Shown: positions 3,611 to 22,729 of the stretch, piece by piece
Numbering within the stretch: the stretch's first letter is position 1
Layout of the letters: each line of letters begins with the position of its first letter
Origin: an uncultured Pseudomonadota bacterium
GTDB lineage: Bacteria; Pseudomonadota; Alphaproteobacteria; UBA9219
Direction of reading: 5' to 3'
DNA: 46,699 nt
Assembly: GCA_903920205.1 (NCBI GenBank)
Contig: CAIXLI010000081.1
Coordinates: forward strand, 1 to 46,699
Notes under the pieces: model-generated
What the model was told of the DNA's origin: nothing
Databases searched by the model: none
The model's input: only the letters and a program-made list of their open reading frames with translations
Translations under genes and position numbers: made by a program

Positions 3611-4678
3611 ATGGCCGATCAGGAACAGGAAGAGAAAACCGAGGCCCCCTCCGGCAAACGTTTAGAAGAAGCGCGTGAGCACGGACAAGTGCCTGTCAGC
3701 CGCGAAACCTCAATGTGGGTGGCATTATTAGGCATTCTGACGGTGATAAGTTTTGCGGTGCCGTCGATGTTGCGGCAGATGGCGGATTTCTTGCGTGGTT
3801 TTCTTGAATCGCCTCACGCCATTTCTCTTGATGAAGAAGGCCTGCAAGCCCTGTTTTTCCAGATATTCGGACGGACCGCGTTGATCGCAGGAGTCGCGTT
3901 TCTCATGTTGATGGCGGCGGTGATTGGGGGAGTCATGCTGCAAACGGGGTTCTTTTTCTCGCTTGATCTGATGGTTCCCGACTTCATGCGGTTGATGCCG
4001 TCTCGTGGTCTAAAAAAGCTTTTTTCGCTTAATTCTCTGGTCGAATTGGGAAAAAGCATGGGTAAGCTCGTCTTTTTAGGAGGTATGGCCTTTCTCGTTC
4101 TCGTGCCAGTGGCGAGGGAAGCGCCAGAATTCACGGGTTTTCCGATCGAGGCTATTTTGGCTTTCGTGCAGAAGAAGGCTTTGCATCTGATCGAGATGCT
4201 GCTTTTGGTCTTTACGGCGATTGCGGCGTTGGATCTTTTTTACACGCGCTTTCAGTACATTAAAAACCTGCGCATGACTAAAGTCGAGGTCAAGGACGAG
4301 ATGAAGCAGCAGGAAGGCGATCCGATGATTAAATCGCGCCTGCGCCAGATGCGTCTTGAAAAAGCCCGCAAGCGCATGATGTCCCAAGTGCCCAAGGCCG
4401 ATGTCGTGATCACGAACCCGACCCATTATGCGGTGGCGCTTCAGTATGATACTTCTAAAATGGCGGCGCCGATTGTCGTCGCCAAGGGCATCAATCTAAT
4501 CGCCGAGCGCATTCGCCAGATTGCCGAGGAAAACAGGATCCCGTTGGTCAGCAATCCCCCCCTCGCACGCGCGATTCATGATACGGTTGAGGTTGACCAA
4601 CAGATTCCAACCCAGCATTATCGGGCGGTGGCTGAAGTCATCTCGTATGTTTACAAGCTGCGGAAAAGAAAGTTTTGA
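3611..4678 (+). CDS. flhB: Flagellar export switch protein FlhB
   Basis: FlhB is the substrate-specificity switch of the flagellar type III export machine. The product has 355 aa. It has a polar N-terminus (EEKTEAPSGKRLEEAREHGQVPVSRE) typical of the family, four membrane segments between about residues 33 and 210, a charged linker (VKDEMKQQEGDP), and the autocleavage motif Asn269-Pro270-Thr271-His272 inside VVITNPTHYAVAL. The invariant KGINLIAERIRQIAEENRIP region follows. The start ATG 3611 has an AAGGTAG-like ribosome site overlapping the fliR stop. All catalytic-loop residues are present, so self-cleavage and switching should be normal. Confidence 0.97.
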   Translation: MADQEQEEKTEAPSGKRLEEAREHGQVPVSRETSMWVALLGILTVISFAVPSMLRQMADFLRGFLESPHAISLDEEGLQALFFQIFGRTALIAGVAFLMLMAAVIGGVMLQTGFFFSLDLMVPDFMRLMPSRGLKKLFSLNSLVELGKSMGKLVFLGGMAFLVLVPVAREAPEFTGFPIEAILAFVQKKALHLIEMLLLVFTAIAALDLFYTRFQYIKNLRMTKVEVKDEMKQQEGDPMIKSRLRQMRLEKARKRMMSQVPKADVVITNPTHYAVALQYDTSKMAAPIVVAKGINLIAERIRQIAEENRIPLVSNPPLARAIHDTVEVDQQIPTQHYRAVAEVISYVYKLRKRKF

Positions 4679-4683
4679 CGCGC

Positions 4684-5094
4684 ATGAAATATCTCAGATA
4701 CGGACTGCTTCTCATGCTTGTCGCCTGCGGCAACGCTCCGACGTATCAAAATACGAACTATGTCTTGCCTGCGACACCGGGCGGACGACTTTGTGCCGAT
4801 CAATGCGTTAAATCGCGCGATTTTTGCCGCCAGTCTTGCGATCTTGACAACCGCGCCTGTTATAACGACGTTCAGGCGGCGGCACAGCGCGATTATGACC
4901 GCTATACCCGCGAACGTTTCGCCAATCGGATGACGGTCGACATGTTACCGAGAGATTTCGAACATCCCCAGGACTGTCTTGCCGCGAAAAAAAGCTGTCT
5001 TGCCGATTGCGTCCGGCCCTATAACTCTTGCTACCGTTCTTGCGGCGGCACCGTGACTGTCACGACATCCTGTCAATTCCTTTGTTTCGAGTGA
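4684..5094 (+). CDS. Cysteine-rich lipoprotein with twin CX3C modules, function unknown
   Basis: I do not recognise this family. From ATG 4684 (136 aa) there is a lipoprotein signal peptide with lipobox LVAC, so Cys15 would be acylated. The mature part has 12 further cysteines in a regular pattern. Cys37, 41, 48, 52 and 59 give C-x3-C-x6-C-x3-C-x6-C, and Cys98, 105, 109, 116 and 120 give C-x6-C-x3-C-x6-C-x3-C. Cys130 and 134 form a third CX3C. The 4/7 spacing puts cysteines on one helix face, suggesting a periplasmic helical hairpin stapled by disulfides. It starts 5 bases after flhB and ends 5 bases before pyk, so it is probably co-transcribed with both, but a flagellar role is only a guess. 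Confidence 0.8.
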   Translation: MKYLRYGLLLMLVACGNAPTYQNTNYVLPATPGGRLCADQCVKSRDFCRQSCDLDNRACYNDVQAAAQRDYDRYTRERFANRMTVDMLPRDFEHPQDCLAAKKSCLADCVRPYNSCYRSCGGTVTVTTSCQFLCFE

Positions 5095-14485: not shown

Positions 14486-15304
14486 TTAGCTATTATGGGT
14501 CGCCTGCGCCAGCGTTTCGATAAAAGCCAGAACGTCGTTAACTAAACACGCTTTGGCTCGACCTTGCGCGTCGAGGTTAGTTTCTATGCGTTTTACGATG
14601 GCGCTACCCACGATCACGGCGTCGGCGGTTTGAGCGATATCCCGCGCCTGTTCCGGGGTCGAGATGCCAAAACCGACACCGACGGGCAGGGAAGAATGCG
14701 GTCTGATCGCTTCAATGGCTCGGCGCACGGGTGCAACGCTGGCCTGTTTACTGCCCGTGATGCCGGCGACCGAGACATAATACAGAAATCCGCTTGCGCC
14801 GTTCAAGATGGTCGGTAGACGCTCTGCGTCCGTTGTCGGTGTGACGAGGCGGATGATGTCGATGTCTTGCTCCTGCGCCAATTTGCGTAATTCGGAATCT
14901 TCTTCGGGAGGAAGGTCGGCGATAATCAAGCCGTCAACGCCCGCCTTTTTTGCGTCGCGCGTGAATTTTTCAAGGCCATAGGCGTAAATCGGATTGGCAT
15001 AACCCATCAGGATAATCGGCGTTTCTTCGTCCTGTTCGCGGAAGGAGGCGACAAGGGCGAGGATTTTGACCATTGTGATTCCTGCCGCGAAAGCGCGCAG
15101 ATTGGCGCATTCGATGGCGGGGCCGTCGGCGACGGGATCGCTGAAAGGCATGCCGATTTCAATCAAATCAACCCCGGCTTTGGGCTGACCCGCCAGAATT
15201 TCGGCAAAGGTTTTCAAATCGGGATCGCCAGCCGAGGTGAATGTGATGAAGGCTTTTTTCTTCACTGCTTTCAGCGCGGCAAAACGGGCGGTGATGCGGC
15301 TCAT
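14486..15304 (-). CDS. trpA: Tryptophan synthase alpha subunit
   Basis: TrpA cleaves indole-3-glycerol phosphate to indole and glyceraldehyde 3-phosphate and channels indole to TrpB. The 272-aa product starts at ATG 15304, overlapping the trpB stop by 4 bases (ATGA). Catalytic residues are in place: Glu49 in [12 protein letters not shown] and Asp60 in PVADGP. The family signatures [24 protein letters not shown] and [11 protein letters not shown] follow. A much longer open frame continues upstream into trpB and was rejected. accD follows 9 bases later. Confidence 0.96.
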
Positions 15305-16512
15305 AGCGTCACTCCCAGCCTGTTGGCGATGGTGAAGATATCCTTGTCGCCGCGTCCGCTTAGATTTACGACCATCAAATGATCGCGGGGCAAGGTTGGG
15401 GCAAGTTTGGCGGCATAGGCCAAAGCATGCGAAGGCTCCAGCGCGGGCAGGATACCTTCCAAACGACTGCACTGCTGAAACGCCGCCACCGCTTCGTCAT
15501 CCGTCGCGGGGACATAAGACACACGCTTGGCGTCGAACAGCCACGCATGTTCGGGGCCGATGCCCGGATAATCAAGGCCTGCGGAAATCGAATGAGCCTC
15601 TTGGATTTGTCCGTCATCGTTTTGAAGGAAATAGCTGCGCATGCCGTGGAGAATGCCTTGCTTGCCCTTTGCCAAAGACGCGGCGTGTTTGTCGGTATCC
15701 AAGCCCAGTCCGGCAGCCTCGACCGCATACATGGCTACCGAAGGCTCGTTCAGAAATTCGTAGAATAATCCCATCGCATTCGATCCGCCGCCGATACAAG
15801 CCACAAGCGAATCCGGCAAACGCTTTTCAGCCTGCATCATTTGTTCGCGCGTTTCGCGCCCGATGATCGCTTGAAAATCGCGCACCATTGCGGGATAGGG
15901 GTGTGGGCCGCCTACCGTGCCGATGATGTAAAAAGTATCCTCAACATTGGCGACCCAATCGCGCAATGCTCCGTTCATCGCGTCTTTGAGGGAGCGCGAG
16001 CCGGATGTGACGGGCTTGACCTCTGCCCCCAGTAAACGCATGCGGAAAACATTGGGCTTCTGCCGTTCGATATCCAGCTCGCCCATATAAACGGTGCAAG
16101 GCAGGTTGAACAAAGCCGCGACGGTGGCGGTCGCCACGCCGTGCTGCCCTGCGCCCGTCTCCGCGATGATGCGGGTTTTGCCCATGCGCTTGGCGAGCAG
16201 AATTTGCCCCATGCAGTGATTGATCTTATGGGCGCCCGTGTGATTCAGTTCTTCGCGCTTCAAATAAATTTTCGCGCCGCCCAGATGTTCGGTCAGTCTT
16301 TGCGCGAAGAAAAGCGGCGAGGGGCGTCCGACATAGTGCTTGAGGTAATAATCCAGCTCCGCCTGAAATGAGGGATCGGCCTTGGCTTGTTCATGGGCTT
16401 TTTCTACCGCCAGAACGAGCGGCATAAGCGTCTCGGGGACATAGCGCCCCCCATAAACCCCGAAATGCCCGTCTTTGTCAGGCAGAGAAGTATAAGAATT
16501 AAGATTTTTCAT
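15301..16512 (-). CDS. trpB: Tryptophan synthase beta subunit
   Basis: TrpB condenses indole and serine to tryptophan using pyridoxal phosphate. From ATG 16512 the product has 403 aa. The PLP lysine is Lys96 in HTGAHKINH. Other landmarks are [15 protein letters not shown] at the N-terminus, [13 protein letters not shown], the phosphate-binding [10 protein letters not shown], and [10 protein letters not shown] at the C-terminus. A TTG 51 bases upstream in frame would add a tail without family similarity. It heads trpB-trpA-accD; trpF, which often precedes it in this group, is not adjacent. The upstream region is shared with a divergent unknown gene. Confidence 0.97.
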
Positions 16513-16581
16513 GGGCGGCAAGATAGAAGAATTTGTCGGAAAGGAACAGTGTTTTTGCCCCAATTCCCTGAATCAACGTCA

Positions 16582-16612
16582 TTTTTTGTATTTTTTTGAG
16601 GACTACAAAAAA
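16582..16612. repeat. AT-rich inverted repeat between trpB and the first paralog
   Basis: A 9-bp inverted repeat (TTTTTTGTA 16582-16590, TACAAAAAA 16604-16612, 13-base loop) sits in the divergent intergenic region. It could form a weak hairpin in either direction or be an operator; nothing more can be said. Confidence 0.35.
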
Positions 16613-16617
16613 ACAAG

Positions 16618-16658
16618 CGGCGAATTAACTGCTTATGCACCATTCTTCATTACAGTTG
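16618..16658 (+). promoter_or_regulatory. Conserved 41-base upstream element, copy 1
   Basis: This 41-base block beginning CGGCGAATTAAC matches 17408-17448 in 38 of 41 positions, while the surrounding sequence has diverged. An 8-base palindrome ATTGCAAT follows in both copies (16679-16686 here), 22-23 bases before the start codon. Preservation upstream of two paralogs suggests a shared regulatory site or transcript leader. Confidence 0.6.
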
Positions 16659-16708
16659 TGGCGTAGTCGAGGTGACGTATTGCAATCAACTATTTGGAGG
16701 AGGCGAGT

Positions 16709-17251
16709 ATGATTTATCGTAATCATAGGGAAGCGATGCCAGCGGCGACACCGGGAAACAATCTCACGGGGGGCAGGATAAGGCAGGATCTCGCGGATAA
16801 ATTACTCGATCCCGAAAGCTATCAGGATGCCAAATTTGGTCGTAATAATAATGGAAACTTGGAAGCGCGTGTCAACATAGGACCCTATAACGTAATTGCT
16901 ACCAATACAGGGGATGGCATTATGTTCGACATCTCGCATCCCGCACAATATGCTCACACCAAACATGTTGTGGCTTCTCCCATTGAAGATTTTAAGGGCG
17001 TCGATGTGCCTACGAATGGCGCTATCCTTGAGGTTTCTCCGTCTGCCAAAGAAACGAAAACCTTACTTAAGGCTTACCCAACAACGGGTGCCATGAAACA
17101 GGGGATGGACCAAAGAAGAATTCCTCTTCTTCAAGAGCCCAAGGTCGATTTTAAGCAAGCGCAGGGGGTCATGGATCTTATTAAAGAGAAGGCGACACCC
17201 CCTGCGAATAAAAAGAGCATAGCGCCCAAAAAATTGGGTATGGAGATTTAA
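16709..17251 (+). CDS. Unrecognised protein, paralog 1 of a tandem pair
   Basis: I do not recognise this family. ATG 16709 follows a strong ribosome site (GGAGGAGG at 16696-16703), so it is very probably translated; the product has 180 aa. It has no signal peptide or membrane segment. Residues about 20-60 (TGGRIR-DLADKLLDPESY) are nearly the same as in the next gene, and a second conserved block is FKGV-P-GAILEVSP near residue 100. The C-terminus is proline- and lysine-rich (DLIKEKATPPANKKS). A perfect rho-independent terminator follows. The predicted protein is soluble, mixed alpha/beta, and hydrophilic. Nearness to the icmD-icmJ pair makes a secreted substrate a possible role, but nothing in the sequence proves it. 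Confidence 0.75.
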   Translation: MIYRNHREAMPAATPGNNLTGGRIRQDLADKLLDPESYQDAKFGRNNNGNLEARVNIGPYNVIATNTGDGIMFDISHPAQYAHTKHVVASPIEDFKGVDVPTNGAILEVSPSAKETKTLLKAYPTTGAMKQGMDQRRIPLLQEPKVDFKQAQGVMDLIKEKATPPANKKSIAPKKLGMEI

Positions 17252-17303
17252 ACCGGTTTCTGACTTGGTTGAATCTGCGCTTGTCGCGTGCCTCCTCCCT
17301 ACA

Positions 17304-17335
17304 AAATCCCCCCGCATTCAATGCGGGGGGATTTT
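17304..17335 (+). terminator. Rho-independent terminator after paralog 1
   Basis: A 14-bp inverted repeat with the core TCCCCCCGCAT/ATGCGGGGGGA and a 3-base loop is followed by TTTTT. It ends the first paralog transcript, so the second paralog must have its own promoter. Confidence 0.92.
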
Positions 17336-17407
17336 TCATGAGACTCTTCCGCAATTCTTTGAATTTAAACAATTTTCTTGGTCTTCAAGAGGGAGGCCAA
17401 AAAATAT

Positions 17408-17448
17408 CGGCGAATTAACCGCTTATGCACCATTATTGATTACAGTTG
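17408..17448 (+). promoter_or_regulatory. Conserved 41-base upstream element, copy 2
   Basis: Second copy of the element at 16618-16658 (38/41 identical), followed by the same ATTGCAAT palindrome at 17469-17476. It lies downstream of a terminator and upstream of paralog 2, so it probably holds the promoter or an operator of that gene. Confidence 0.6.
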
Positions 17449-17497
17449 ACGTGTAATTGGTGCGATGCATTGCAATTAATTATTGATGGAGGCGATT

Positions 17498-18070
17498 ATG
17501 ATTAATGGCTGGGTGGGTAAGAATTATAGAGGTGAAATGCAGACGGGGACACTGGGGAACAGGCCGACGGGCGGCAGGATTAGGCCGGATCTCGCGGATA
17601 AACTGCTTGATCCTGAAAGTTATAAGGGCGCTAAGTTCGCCAAGAACACCGATGGAGAGCCCCAGGCGCGCGTCACCATAGATGGTTATCATGTAACCGC
17701 CACGAATCTAAAATCAGGCATAGTGTTCGACATCGAACATCCAAGGCAAGACACTCATACCGACAAAATCATAGCCTCGCCCGTTGCCGATTTTAAAGGC
17801 GTTCAGCAGCCGACCGATGGCGCTATTCTTGAGGTTTCTCCGGAATCCGGACAAATAAATACCTTTCTTAAGACGTACCCCAACAAGACCTCGCCGATAC
17901 AAAGAAGGATTCCCCTTCAAGATACAAGCGTCGACACCAGCAAAGCCAAGGCGATTATGGACCTTATTAAAGAAAAGACGACGGCTCCTGCTCATAAAAA
18001 AAGCATCTCGGTCAAAGGACCGGGGATGACGGCCAAGGTTGGCCGGCCAAATTTCGAAGTGCCTGTCTGA
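17498..18070 (+). CDS. Unrecognised protein, paralog 2 of a tandem pair
   Basis: Tandem duplicate of the gene at 16709. ATG 17498 follows a GATGGAGG ribosome site; the product has 190 aa. The conserved blocks are the same: TGGRIRPDLADKLLDPESY near residue 25, a middle block with VFDIEHP, FKGV-QPTDGAILEVSP, and a C-terminal MDLIKEKTTAPAHKKS. The C-terminus is about 10 residues longer than in paralog 1 (ending NFEVPV). No signal peptide or membrane segment is seen. Both coding and upstream sequences were duplicated and the core kept under constraint, which argues for two working genes. Function unknown. Confidence 0.75.
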   Translation: MINGWVGKNYRGEMQTGTLGNRPTGGRIRPDLADKLLDPESYKGAKFAKNTDGEPQARVTIDGYHVTATNLKSGIVFDIEHPRQDTHTDKIIASPVADFKGVQQPTDGAILEVSPESGQINTFLKTYPNKTSPIQRRIPLQDTSVDTSKAKAIMDLIKEKTTAPAHKKSISVKGPGMTAKVGRPNFEVPV

Positions 18071-18126
18071 ACTGACTTCGGATCGGGCGATAACAGGGAA
18101 TTCCAAGTGCGATACCCTTAACCCTT

Positions 18127-18152
18127 CCCCCGCATTTTTTGCGGGGGCTTTG
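18127..18152 (+). terminator. Likely terminator after paralog 2
   Basis: A GC-rich hairpin (CCCCCGCA 18127-18134 with TGCGGGGG ending at 18147, T-rich loop) is followed only by CTTTG, so it is weaker than the terminator after paralog 1. The stem core resembles that of the first terminator, suggesting it was copied with the gene. Confidence 0.55.
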
Positions 18153-18269
18153 GGCTGTCCGCCGTTCTTCAGTGCATAAAAATTTGAGGGAAACGCCGTG
18201 TAATGGGGGGCTTGTCTGAAAGGCCTCCGCGAAACAACGTTACGGTTCTGCCATCGGTGAGGGAGAGGC

Positions 18270-18923
18270 TTACGTTGGGACTTTGGCGAACATGTCTTGC
18301 CATGCGCTTGTCGGCAGTTCGGCAAAGGGGCCGCGGGGAGAACGCCAGAATTTGACGATCTGGGGGAAGCCGTTGATGTCGTTGCCGTGGCTGCGCACCA
18401 TGTGTTTGTCCAAAGGCATCAGGCGAATGCCGTCAAGCTTTCCTGTGGCGGCGGCGCGTTCGGATGCGGTCATGTGTTCGTGCAGGACGGTCGCCAGCAG
18501 CAAAGGGTCGTCGCTGCCCAGACGCTTCTTGGCCTCGGTGCGGCGCGTCATGAGCGCGTCCAGGGCACGAGTTGCGGCCTCGGTCATCGCGCCGTCTTCT
18601 TCGGCGCGGGCGACATAGATGGCGCGGGCGATGTGATTAAGCTCGGCTTGGGTAATTTCGGGCAGCCAGATTAGAACACCGCCGCCCATCAGGCCTGCGC
18701 GATCCAGCGACTGCACTTGCTCGCAGAAACTGCAGGCGGTGACGAGGTCGCCTTCAAAAGGCACAATGCGTTGATATTGGCTGGCGCGGAAACCGCAAAA
18801 ACGGCAAGAGAAACCGTCGCGCTTCAGAATTTTTTCTGCGCTCGATTTCGAGGGAGGGCCGGAGCCCCCGCCCTCGGCGCCGGACGACTGCCCGACGCCG
18901 AGAGTGAGAGGGAGGAAAGACAA
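18270..18923 (-). CDS. icmJ: IcmJ/DotN-like type IVB secretion protein
   Basis: In Legionella, IcmJ (DotN) is a zinc-binding part of the Dot/Icm coupling complex that delivers effectors to the secretion channel. The 217-aa product has the family N-terminus (FLPLTLGV), a zinc site from Cys40/Cys43 (SCRFCGF) and Cys64/Cys67 (TACSFC), and the diagnostic GGGVLIWLPEITQAELNHIARAIYVA. It ends with a basic RSPRGPFAEL region. An insertion-poor loop between the two CxxC pairs is shorter than in Legionella. The start is a TTG at 18923, 12 bases after the icmD-like stop; no better start gives the conserved N-terminus. Legionella has the same icmD-icmJ order, but icmB, the next gene there, is missing here. 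Confidence 0.83.
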   Translation of the reverse strand: MSFLPLTLGVGQSSGAEGGGSGPPSKSSAEKILKRDGFSCRFCGFRASQYQRIVPFEGDLVTACSFCEQVQSLDRAGLMGGGVLIWLPEITQAELNHIARAIYVARAEEDGAMTEAATRALDALMTRRTEAKKRLGSDDPLLLATVLHEHMTASERAAATGKLDGIRLMPLDKHMVRSHGNDINGFPQIVKFWRSPRGPFAELPTSAWQDMFAKVPT

Positions 18924-18935
18924 AATTCTACCGTA

Positions 18936-19325
18936 TTAGAACTGGATGCCGCTACCGAAGCTGGCCTGAGAGCCGCCCATCGTATTGCCGCCCGTTTTCT
19001 GGATCATACCGATAACGGTAGGGGCCGCGAGGAACGCAGCGCCAGCGCCTAACTTACCGATTGCTGGTGCAAGCGGGTTCTGGCCAGCATTGTCGGCATG
19101 TTTCTTGGCACCCGAAATGCCGGCGACGGTCATGACCGCGCCAAGGCCGTAGCTGATAAGGCCGACAACATGCAGCGCTGGCTTGACAACGGAATCGTCC
19201 GCGTTGCCAGCTGCACTTTGCAAATCTTGCGCCAAAGCATCCATGGGAAACACGGCCGCAAAAGCAGCGGCGACCACAAGGCCGGTCAGGATGTCGTTGA
19301 TGAGTTCTTGCTTTATATTCTTCAT
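18936..19325 (-). CDS. icmD: IcmD/DotP-like type IVB secretion protein
   Basis: Small membrane protein of the IcmC/IcmD family of Dot/Icm systems. The 129-aa product has an N-terminal signal peptide (hydrophobic VVAAAFAAVFPMDALA, cleavage likely after ALA). Two membrane segments follow at about residues 51-70 and 88-110, joined by a KKHADN-PLAPAIG loop that matches the K-x-H-x-D-N loop of IcmD. The tail is Gly/Ser-rich. ATG 19325 has an excellent GGAGGAGAG ribosome site. It is followed by icmJ, the same order as in Legionella. The family is short and variable, so IcmC or a TraQ-like relative is the main alternative; adjacency to icmJ favours IcmD. Confidence 0.72.
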   Translation of the reverse strand: MKNIKQELINDILTGLVVAAAFAAVFPMDALAQDLQSAAGNADDSVVKPALHVVGLISYGLGAVMTVAGISGAKKHADNAGQNPLAPAIGKLGAGAAFLAAPTVIGMIQKTGGNTMGGSQASFGSGIQF

Positions 19326-19487: not shown

Positions 19488-19606
19488 ATCTTTAACCATA
19501 GCTATTTGGGGGGTATCTTTATGTGCCCAATAAGTTGCTGAAAGCCGTTGTTGTCGATAGGATGGGGGTGCAGGTGCGCCGCCTTTTTCGACAGGGGAGG
19601 ATATCC

Positions 19607-20347
19607 GTGAGGCAAAGTTCCACTCGATTTGTCAAAGCGTCTTGGCTCGGTGTTTTCCTTGTCGCCATCCTTGGTGGCTGCGTGGCTGCGCCGCATAACT
19701 TCACGCCGCTGGCTTCGATCAAAACAGACCCATCGCTGCCGCAAACCTTCAAGTCGGCCTATCGTCTCGGTGCGGGCGATGAGGTGGAGGTCAAGTTTTT
19801 CTTTACGCCTGAACTGAATGATCGTTTGACCGTTCGTCCGGACGGCAAAGTTTCGATCATGTTCGCGCAGGATATTCAGGCTGCGGGATTGACTGCTGAA
19901 GAATTAGCCAGCGACATCCGCGCCGTTCTTGCGCCGCATGTCAAACAGCTTGATCTCGTCGTGATCGTTCGCGGCTTCGCCAGTCAGAAAGCCTATGTCG
20001 GCGGTGAAGTGACCAAGCCAGGCTCTGTGCCTTTGACCGGCAATGAACGTTTGCTCCAGGTTTTGGCGGATGCTGGCTGGGTGACTCCTGCGGGGGCCGA
20101 CACGGTCGTCGTCGTGCGCCGCGATGCCGAAGGCACCGAGAAAATTTATCCCGTCAATATCGCTCAACTGGCGAGCGGGCAGAATATGGATCAGAATATT
20201 TCGATGCAACCGGGCGACATGGTTTTGGTTCCTCCGTCGGATGCCGTGGTGTCGGATCGTTGGGTCGATCAAAATATTCGCCAATTGCTCCCCTTCACGC
20301 CTAGCGCCGGTGTTTCCTACAACATCAACAGTAATCCGAAACAGTAA
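19607..20347 (+). CDS. Polysaccharide export outer-membrane lipoprotein (Wza-type)
   Basis: Proteins of this family form or gate outer-membrane channels for capsule or exopolysaccharide export. The start is GTG 19607, with a superb AGGGGAGG ribosome site 6 bases upstream; earlier in-frame starts at 19523 and 19562 would push the signal peptide inward. The 246-aa product has a lipoprotein signal ending LGGC (Cys25). A Poly_export domain follows (YRLGAGDEVEVKFFFTPELND, VRPDGKVSIMFAQDIQAAGLT), then an SLBB domain (KAYVGGEVTKPGSVPLTGN) and a C-terminal GDMVLVPPSD. It is shorter than Wza (about 380 aa), having one SLBB domain. No glycosyltransferase or Wzc gene is adjacent. It is divergent from icmD. 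Confidence 0.88.
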   Translation: MRQSSTRFVKASWLGVFLVAILGGCVAAPHNFTPLASIKTDPSLPQTFKSAYRLGAGDEVEVKFFFTPELNDRLTVRPDGKVSIMFAQDIQAAGLTAEELASDIRAVLAPHVKQLDLVVIVRGFASQKAYVGGEVTKPGSVPLTGNERLLQVLADAGWVTPAGADTVVVVRRDAEGTEKIYPVNIAQLASGQNMDQNISMQPGDMVLVPPSDAVVSDRWVDQNIRQLLPFTPSAGVSYNINSNPKQ

Positions 20348-20513
20348 TGTTCCGCAGGGGGATTTGGCAAAGTGTAGTTCGTTTGCTTGAAAATACGGAA
20401 AAGGCCCTCGCCGCGTAACTGCAATGGCCAAAGCCTATTAAGCGACTGCGACCAAGAGCTTCCTCGGGGTCTCTTGTTGACGTTGAGTGTTGGGGCCTTC
20501 AAAGGATTCTGCG

Positions 20514-21479
20514 ATGTTCTCTTTTTCTGATGCACGTTTTGGGCTAGGACGCGTTATTCGTAGGGTGCGCGGCGCCTTGTTCTATCCGCATTGGATGGTC
20601 GGGGTTGTCGATCAGCCTATAGAAAACGCGCTAGGGTGGACTGAAATGCCGCCGGTGCGGTGGGTTGAGGCTTTTGACAGAACACGCACTCTCGCCGCGC
20701 CATTTCCTTGGCCCGGTAGCCCCGATACGTTTGTGTGCGAGAATTTCGATCTTAAGGTTCATCAGGCACGTCTTGCCGCCGTCAAGCTGGACGCCAACGG
20801 CATTGCGGCTGAAGTCAATCTTGATGTTCCCCTTTCCGCGCCTCTTTCCTTTCCCTTCCTCTTTATGCGTGATGGGATTGTTTATGCAATGCCGGAATCC
20901 AGCGCGTCGCGGCGGTTGGAAATTTTCCGGTGGCAGGAACATGATGGCACATGGGCTCCTCATGCGGTCGTGTTCGAAGACAAGCCGGTGTTTAATGCCG
21001 TTCTCTTCGAAAAAGACGGATGGTTTTGGATCGCCTATACTGATTTGACTCAAACACCGCAGGATAATCTGAACCTGATGTATTCGTCGCGGCTGGCGGG
21101 GCCGTGGCGGCATCATGCGGCCAATCCTGTGCAGACAGGGCGCGAGGCTAGCCTCAACGGAGGGCCTTTCTTTGAGGTTGATGGCAGACTTTACCGTCCG
21201 GCGCAGGACTGTTCGGAGGTTCAGGGCGGTGCGCTCAGGATCAGGGAGGTCGTGGTTTGCACGCCTCTGGCTTACAAGGAAAGAAATGTCACGCGGATTG
21301 TTCCTTCTTCTTCCGCCTATCCCGATGGCTTTCATACGCTGACGGCATGGGGCGATAAATGCCTTGTGGACGGTATGCGCCTTACTTTCTCGCTACGGCA
21401 CTTGTGGCACAGGATGGGGCGCAGGTTGCGACACGAGGAAGCGTTTCTCCGCAGAAGTGCGGGAAGGGCAAGGCCGTGA
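20514..21479 (+). CDS. GINT1-like beta-propeller protein of glycan loci
   Basis: This resembles the N-terminal domain of glucosamine inositolphosphorylceramide transferase 1, a five-bladed propeller related to GH43/68 folds that occurs in bacterial surface-polysaccharide clusters, often beside formyl- or glycosyltransferases. From ATG 20514 (AAAGGA ribosome site) the product has 321 aa with repeated blades: SFPFLFMRDGIVYAMPES, NAVLFEKDGWFWIAYTD, LMYSSRLAGPWRHHAANPV, and the family mark FFEVDGRLYRPAQDCS. The usual DPF-type early motif is modified. There is no signal peptide, so it acts in the cytoplasm. Its stop overlaps the GTG start of the serpin gene (GTGA), so the two are translationally coupled. 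Enzymatic activity is not established. Confidence 0.72.
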   Translation: MFSFSDARFGLGRVIRRVRGALFYPHWMVGVVDQPIENALGWTEMPPVRWVEAFDRTRTLAAPFPWPGSPDTFVCENFDLKVHQARLAAVKLDANGIAAEVNLDVPLSAPLSFPFLFMRDGIVYAMPESSASRRLEIFRWQEHDGTWAPHAVVFEDKPVFNAVLFEKDGWFWIAYTDLTQTPQDNLNLMYSSRLAGPWRHHAANPVQTGREASLNGGPFFEVDGRLYRPAQDCSEVQGGALRIREVVVCTPLAYKERNVTRIVPSSSAYPDGFHTLTAWGDKCLVDGMRLTFSLRHLWHRMGRRLRHEEAFLRRSAGRARP

Positions 21480-22729
21480 ATAAAATCTTTGCCGCGGCCG
21501 CGCTTTTGTGGATGGGGACGCTTGCTTCAATACCGGCAAGGGCCGGAGAGGCGATGTTGTCTGTTCAGCCTCTGGCACAGGCGCAAAATGTTTTTGCCAC
21601 CGACCTCTATGCCAAGCTTCGGGGGCGACCAGGCAATTTGTTTTTCTCTCCTTACAGCGTCGCCATGGCTATCGACATGGTTTTTGTCGGCGCGAACGGG
21701 GGCACGGAAGCCGAGATAGCCAAAGCGCTTCATTTGGATCGGCTTCAGACGAACGTTGCGGATACTTCTTTGCGCACGGCGCTTCTTCGGCAGGCCAAGC
21801 AACGCGGATTGTTCGATGGTGCGTCCAAGGACGGGTTAGAAATTCATGTCGCCAACGCACTGTGGGGTAAGGCCGGATATCCTTTTAATGCCGAGTATAA
21901 GGAAAGCATCAGAGACAGCTTTGCCGGCAATTTTGAACCTCTGGATTTTGGCAATGAACCCTCTGCGCGCGATAAGATCAACGGATGGGTTTCCAATCAG
22001 ACGGCGGATAAGATCCAAAATATTATCGGGTCAGGCGTTCTTAATGCCGAAACCCGCTTGGTTTTGACCAACGCTATTTATTTTAAGGCTGCTTGGGGCA
22101 AAAAATTTCAGAAAATTGCTACGCAAAAAGAAACTTTCCGTGTGTCCGCAAACAAGAACGTATCCGCCGATATGATGAGGCAGACGGGTTTTTTTAAATT
22201 GGCTTCGTTGGCGGGATTTAGGCTTTTGAGTGTTCCCTACAAATACGACGAAGCATCGATGCTGATTCTTTTGCCGGATAGAGTGGACGGGTTGCCGGAT
22301 ATCGAGGCGTCGCTAACAGCCGAGAATTTAGAGTCGTGGATTGAAAAAGGCAAAACTGTCTCCGTGGCTTTGTCTTTGCCTAAATTCAAGAACACCAGCG
22401 CGTTTAGCTTGAGAGAGCCACTGGAGACGCTGGGAATGAGAAAGTCTTTTGCTGCGGGTCAGGCCGATTTTTTATCTATCGCCAATGTTCGTGGGGATCC
22501 CTTGTTCGTCGGTGCAGTTCTTCACAAGGCTTTTGTCGATGTCGATGAAGAAGGGACCGAGGCCGCTGCTGCTACGGCTGTCGTAATGGTGGGGACGGCA
22601 ATGGTGGAGCGCGGCGAGCCGGAGCCTTTTGTTGCCGATCATCCCTTTCTCTATATTATCAGGGCTAACCGCACCGGCGATATCCTTTTTATGGGGAGGT
22701 TGACCGATCCGACACAGCAGGGGGGATGA
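21476..22729 (+). CDS. Secreted serpin (serine protease inhibitor family)
   Basis: Serpins trap target proteases by a conformational change. From GTG 21476 (overlapping the previous stop) the 417-aa product has a signal peptide ending ARA before GEAMLSV. It then has the complete serpin fold: NLFFSPYSVAMAIDMVFVGANGGTEAEI near residue 60, a NAIYFKAAWGKKF breach motif near 200, PYKYDEASMLILLP, and an inhibitory-type hinge DEEGTEAAAATAVVMVG. HPFLYIIRANRTGDILFMGRL closes the fold. The small-residue P12-P9 hinge implies real inhibition rather than loss of function. The reactive loop is longer than in antitrypsin, so the P1 residue is not certain. It is probably periplasmic or outer-surface. Bacterial serpins are uncommon. 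Confidence 0.94.
   Translation: MNKIFAAAALLWMGTLASIPARAGEAMLSVQPLAQAQNVFATDLYAKLRGRPGNLFFSPYSVAMAIDMVFVGANGGTEAEIAKALHLDRLQTNVADTSLRTALLRQAKQRGLFDGASKDGLEIHVANALWGKAGYPFNAEYKESIRDSFAGNFEPLDFGNEPSARDKINGWVSNQTADKIQNIIGSGVLNAETRLVLTNAIYFKAAWGKKFQKIATQKETFRVSANKNVSADMMRQTGFFKLASLAGFRLLSVPYKYDEASMLILLPDRVDGLPDIEASLTAENLESWIEKGKTVSVALSLPKFKNTSAFSLREPLETLGMRKSFAAGQADFLSIANVRGDPLFVGAVLHKAFVDVDEEGTEAAAATAVVMVGTAMVERGEPEPFVADHPFLYIIRANRTGDILFMGRLTDPTQQGG

What the first reader, a model, noticed from the sequence alone, without database searches (positions are those of the whole stretch)
16618..18070. Tandem duplicate of an unrecognised gene together with its upstream control region
Two genes of 180 and 190 codons share strongly conserved blocks. 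Each is preceded by the same 41-base element (38/41 identical), an ATTGCAAT palindrome 22-23 bases before the start, and a strong ribosome site, and each is followed by its own similar terminator. The intervening sequence has diverged, so the upstream element is under selection. Two separately regulated copies of a soluble orphan protein next to secretion-system genes deserve attention.
Basis: partly seen in the sequence, partly recalled or inferred. Interest (0 to 1): 0.65.

Follow-up and report, generated by a model that had tools for sequence, protein, structure and literature searches.

The report
Tandem orphan gene pair, shared promoter
An uncultured alphaproteobacterium carries two tandem copies of a gene for a small soluble protein with no known relatives, each with the same conserved control stretch; the duplication is real, but there is no evidence yet for what the proteins do.

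Summary
Window 16618-18070 carries two tandem paralogous genes (180 and 190 aa, 57% identical), each a full transcription unit of about 790 bp: a 41-nt element (38/41 identical, 50/49 nt before ATG), ribosome site, gene, homologous terminator. Both copies evolve as protein genes (dN 0.34, dS about 1.1). The element is the most conserved 41-nt stretch of the unit, while four-fold sites are 56% identical. The genome has only these two element copies and no further paralogue, so it is neither a general repeat nor a detectable wider regulon. The leader shows no RNA structure and no conserved upstream ORF; a DNA-level promoter or operator is likeliest.

The proteins are orphans: no relative in Pfam, NCBIfam, PHROGs, PADLOC, phages, plasmids, IMG/VR, 33 order genomes or about 780 sampled class/phylum genomes. 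AlphaFold2 gives both the same helix/beta-sheet/helix core; no fold match is convincing.

The pair fills a variable slot between trpB and icmJ: 40-52 nt in two congeners, a TPR membrane protein in a third. Best reading: an accessory, lineage-restricted gene that duplicated long ago and is kept under shared control. A link to the IcmJ-type secretion system rests on adjacency alone.

The parts
16618..16658 (+). 41-nt upstream element, copy 1 (putative promoter/operator)
   Evidence: 38/41 identical to copy 2; only two in the genome
16659..16708 (+). rest of leader, copy 1, with ATTGCAAT (16679-16686) and ribosome site
   Evidence: 65% (element to ribosome site) and 80% (ribosome site) identical to copy 2
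16709..17251 (+). orphan gene copy 1, 180 aa (P0001)
   Evidence: ORF; dN/dS about 0.3 against copy 2
17303..17335 (+). intrinsic terminator, copy 1
   Evidence: 16-bp perfect inverted repeat, fold z -6.2
17408..17448 (+). 41-nt upstream element, copy 2
17449..17497 (+). rest of leader, copy 2, with ATTGCAAT (17469-17476) and ribosome site
17498..18070 (+). orphan gene copy 2, 190 aa (P0002)
   Evidence: ORF; 57% identical to copy 1
18127..18147 (+). intrinsic terminator, copy 2
   Evidence: stem homologous to that of copy 1, fold z -3.5
18270..18923 (-). icmJ/dotN homologue, right edge of the slot
   Evidence: NCBIfam NF038221 E 6.4e-24, below its curated cut-off (84.6 against 100 bits); in 29 of 33 order genomes
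15301..16512 (-). trpB, left edge of the slot
   Evidence: tblastn 87-90% to congeners, where it lies beside icmJ

Best explanation
A lineage-restricted accessory gene, probably acquired into the variable trpB-icmJ slot, duplicated in tandem as a complete monocistronic unit (element, ribosome site, gene, terminator). Both copies have since diverged to 57% identity under purifying selection. Each copy is transcribed on its own from a promoter that includes or abuts the 41-nt element; because the element is the same, one regulator or promoter type probably controls both. The product is a small basic soluble protein with a helix/beta-sheet/helix core and disordered tails; its most likely role is as a binding protein rather than an enzyme. 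Shown: duplication, purifying selection, conservation and uniqueness of the element, variable slot, orphan status in the collections searched. Inferred: DNA-level promoter/operator, co-regulation, acquisition, binding role.
For: Tandem unit of about 790 nt including terminators. dN 0.34, dS 1.06-1.22; codon positions 70/76/53% identical. Element 93% identical against 47-66% in most of the rest of the unit, P about 2e-7. Only two element copies in the genome by pattern and by profile. Leader folds no better than shuffles. The upstream ORF of copy 1 (25 codons) ends after 4 codons in copy 2. GC3 0.47 and 0.55 against 0.56-0.72 for 13 neighbours. trpB and icmJ adjacent (52 and 40 nt between them) in two congeners, with another gene between them in a third. 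Same predicted core in both copies.
Against: No transcript or promoter mapping. No recognisable -35/-10 pair in the leaders. Gene conversion over a short tract could mimic selection. Low GC can also reflect fast evolution rather than transfer. Mean pLDDT is only 66-70, from a two-sequence alignment. The binding role is a guess from the weak fold rows.
Confidence: 0.7

Rival explanations
1. The two proteins are cargo (effectors) of the IcmJ-type IVB secretion system, co-expressed under a shared regulator.
For: Adjacent to icmJ; two DotI/IcmL genes elsewhere in the genome; orphan, low GC, no cysteine, hydrophilic, disordered tails.
Against: icmJ is on the other strand and convergent, behind a terminator. 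The slot holds unrelated or no genes in congeners. C-termini are basic, not glutamate-rich. No cysteine in 370 residues has P about 0.05 by chance.
Confidence: 0.2
2. Gene conversion between the copies, not selection on regulation, keeps the 41-nt element alike.
For: Only two copies are available, so conservation cannot be followed across species.
Against: A conversion tract would have to end sharply at both sides of 41 nt; identity falls to 55% and 65% directly outside.
Confidence: 0.12
3. The pair is debris of a phage or mobile element, and the products serve that element (for example immunity or anti-defence).
For: Variable slot, low GC; a site-specific-recombinase-like ORF at the contig edge (1-1099, judged by eye).
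Against: No relatives in IMG/VR, phages, plasmids, PHROGs or PADLOC. No flanking repeats at the slot edges beyond the duplication itself. The recombinase lies 15 kb away.
Confidence: 0.12

Closest known systems
Tandemly duplicated orphan (ORFan) genes in bacterial accessory slots
   Same: Lineage-restricted, low GC, in a variable slot between conserved genes, kept as two diverged copies
   Different: Here the control element is more conserved than the genes as a whole, and each copy keeps its own terminator
BLIP-like/DUF2874 proteins and p32/C1QBP (best structural rows)
   Same: Helix followed by an antiparallel sheet in the predicted core; VIA Z about 5
   Different: 5-15% identity, Foldseek E above 0.07; Z of 5 is within the range of unrelated matches

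Membership tests
Type IVB secretion effector | Translocation by the secretion system | not testable with these tools
   Needs a translocation assay
Type IVB secretion effector | Genome encodes components of the system | tested here: met
   icmJ in the window (sub-threshold) and two DotI/IcmL genes over the cut-off; completeness of the system not tested
Type IVB secretion effector | Glutamate-rich C-terminal signal seen in many Legionella effectors (own knowledge; not universal) | tested here: not met
   Last 30 residues carry net +3 and +4 and are not Glu-rich
BLIP-like/DUF2874 or p32 fold | Significant fold match | tested here: inconclusive
   Z about 5, Foldseek E 0.08-0.6
CtrA-regulated promoter | TTAA-N7-TTAA box | tested here: not met
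   The element has TTAA followed after 7 nt by TGCA (sequence)
Sigma-70-type promoter | -35/-10 hexamers at 16-18 nt in the leader | tested here: inconclusive
   No hit in either leader at the scan's threshold; TTGACG occurs in copy 2 and TTGTGG in copy 1
Structured cis-regulatory RNA | Stable or known leader structure | tested here: not met
   z 0.0 and -1.0; no Rfam match reached its gathering score in 16400-18300

The most novel reading that the evidence does not exclude
A new protein family with a fold of its own, secreted by an uncharacterised alphaproteobacterial IVB system and controlled by a dedicated regulator that recognises only these two sites.
Probability: 0.08. Interest if true: 0.6.

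Novelty: new member of a known kind. Interest (0 to 1): 0.3.

Why it matters
Retention of two diverged orphan copies with a strictly kept control element says that the proteins matter to this organism. A slot beside a secretion gene that is empty or filled differently in each species is a place to look for new accessory functions. Without a function or relatives, however, the case is one of very many orphan duplicates.

Tried and rejected
Pfam, NCBIfam, PHROGs and PADLOC: no credible match. PDB sequence search: best E 0.2. tblastn/blastn against plasmids and phages: none. IMG/VR with three pattern sets and GTDB contigs with one: none. Class sample: one match at E 0.009 (G345, L038) lies in what reads as a CCA-adding-enzyme-like ORF, judged chance. 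Upstream ORF: not conserved. RNA leader: no structure; Rfam matches below threshold. The element in the order: one 3-mismatch site (G002) inside a long ORF, judged chance. RpoN-type promoter by eye: GG/GC spacing differs between the copies. Antisense ORF 17714-18325 crosses the copy-2 terminator and was discarded. Viral and PDB fold searches: nothing with Foldseek E under 0.03. Literature searches gave nothing specific.

Full report
What is there. The window is contig C81 of a 2.3-Mb alphaproteobacterial genome in 228 contigs; the class follows from named relatives of its icmJ. Between trpB and icmJ, both on the minus strand, lie two plus-strand genes, 16709-17251 and 17498-18070. The proteins (180 and 190 aa) are 57% identical, with runs such as TGGRIRxDLADKLLDPESY and GAILEVSP. 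The repeat unit is a whole transcription unit: 41-nt element, leader with ATTGCAAT, ribosome site, gene, terminator; spacing about 790 nt.

Is it more than chance? The two frames diverge as protein genes do: codon positions are 70, 76 and 53% identical, dN about 0.34 and dS about 1.1, so both have been kept as translated genes since the duplication. Against four-fold sites that are 56% identical, the element at 38/41 has P about 2e-7. It is the best 41-nt window in the whole unit; the best coding windows reach 36/41. Identity drops to 55% directly above it and 65% directly below. The ATTGCAAT octamer alone carries no weight. The element occurs only twice in the genome with 3 mismatches allowed, whole or as its core, and a 106-position profile of the leader finds no third site at E up to 10. 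In the 32 other genomes of the order only one 3-mismatch core match appears, inside a long ORF.

How it may work. The leaders do not fold better than shuffled sequence, and the short ORF that starts in the element of copy 1 is cut after four codons in copy 2, so an RNA switch or leader peptide is unlikely. This leaves a DNA site: a promoter with an unusual sequence or an operator (inference). No sigma-70 pair passes the scan in either leader. Each unit has its own terminator, so the copies are probably separate transcripts under one control.

The proteins. No family library matches, nor do phages, plasmids, IMG/VR or GTDB contigs. A profile finds nothing further in the own genome even at E 10, in the 33 genomes of the order, in 385 of the class (one match judged chance) or in 398 of the phylum. 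AlphaFold2, with only two sequences, gives a confident core (blocks at pLDDT about 90) of a short helix, antiparallel strands and a C-terminal helix in both copies, with tails under 50. Structural searches give only Z about 5 (BLIP-like/DUF2874, p32) and no Foldseek E under 0.03. Nothing suggests an enzyme; a binding role is a guess.

The slot. In congeners G009 and G011 trpB and icmJ lie 52 and 40 nt apart (read; synteny), against 1757 nt here. In G010 a 533-aa membrane protein with TPRs lies between them. The pair is therefore accessory; its GC3 of 0.47 and 0.55 lies below that of 13 neighbours (0.56-0.72). The congener synteny on both sides argues against a chimeric contig. The genome has two DotI/IcmL genes elsewhere, so a secretion system probably exists, but adjacency to icmJ is the only link.

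Verdict. It is an orphan tandem pair with a conserved control element, of unknown molecular function and modest interest.

Noticed in passing
window 21359-22729 (+): A serpin (Pfam PF00079, E 9e-108), a protease inhibitor family that is uncommon in bacteria.
   Followed up: partly
window 18936-19325 (-): Small hydrophobic protein upstream of icmJ; related copies lie beside icmJ in nearly all relatives of the order, often two or three in a row. No family match.
   Followed up: partly
L011 1-1500 (G005, 3' of icmJ): A 488-residue open frame of short repeats such as ALTTxQIAxL lies convergent to icmJ in a congener, another filling downstream of icmJ.
   Followed up: no
window 20487-21479 (+): Match to the GINT1 N-terminal glycosyltransferase domain (PF24793, E 7.5e-26) beside a polysaccharide export gene (19523-20347).
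   Followed up: no
window 4675-5094 (+): Cysteine-rich putative lipoprotein with a weak, sub-threshold match to big defensin.
   Followed up: no
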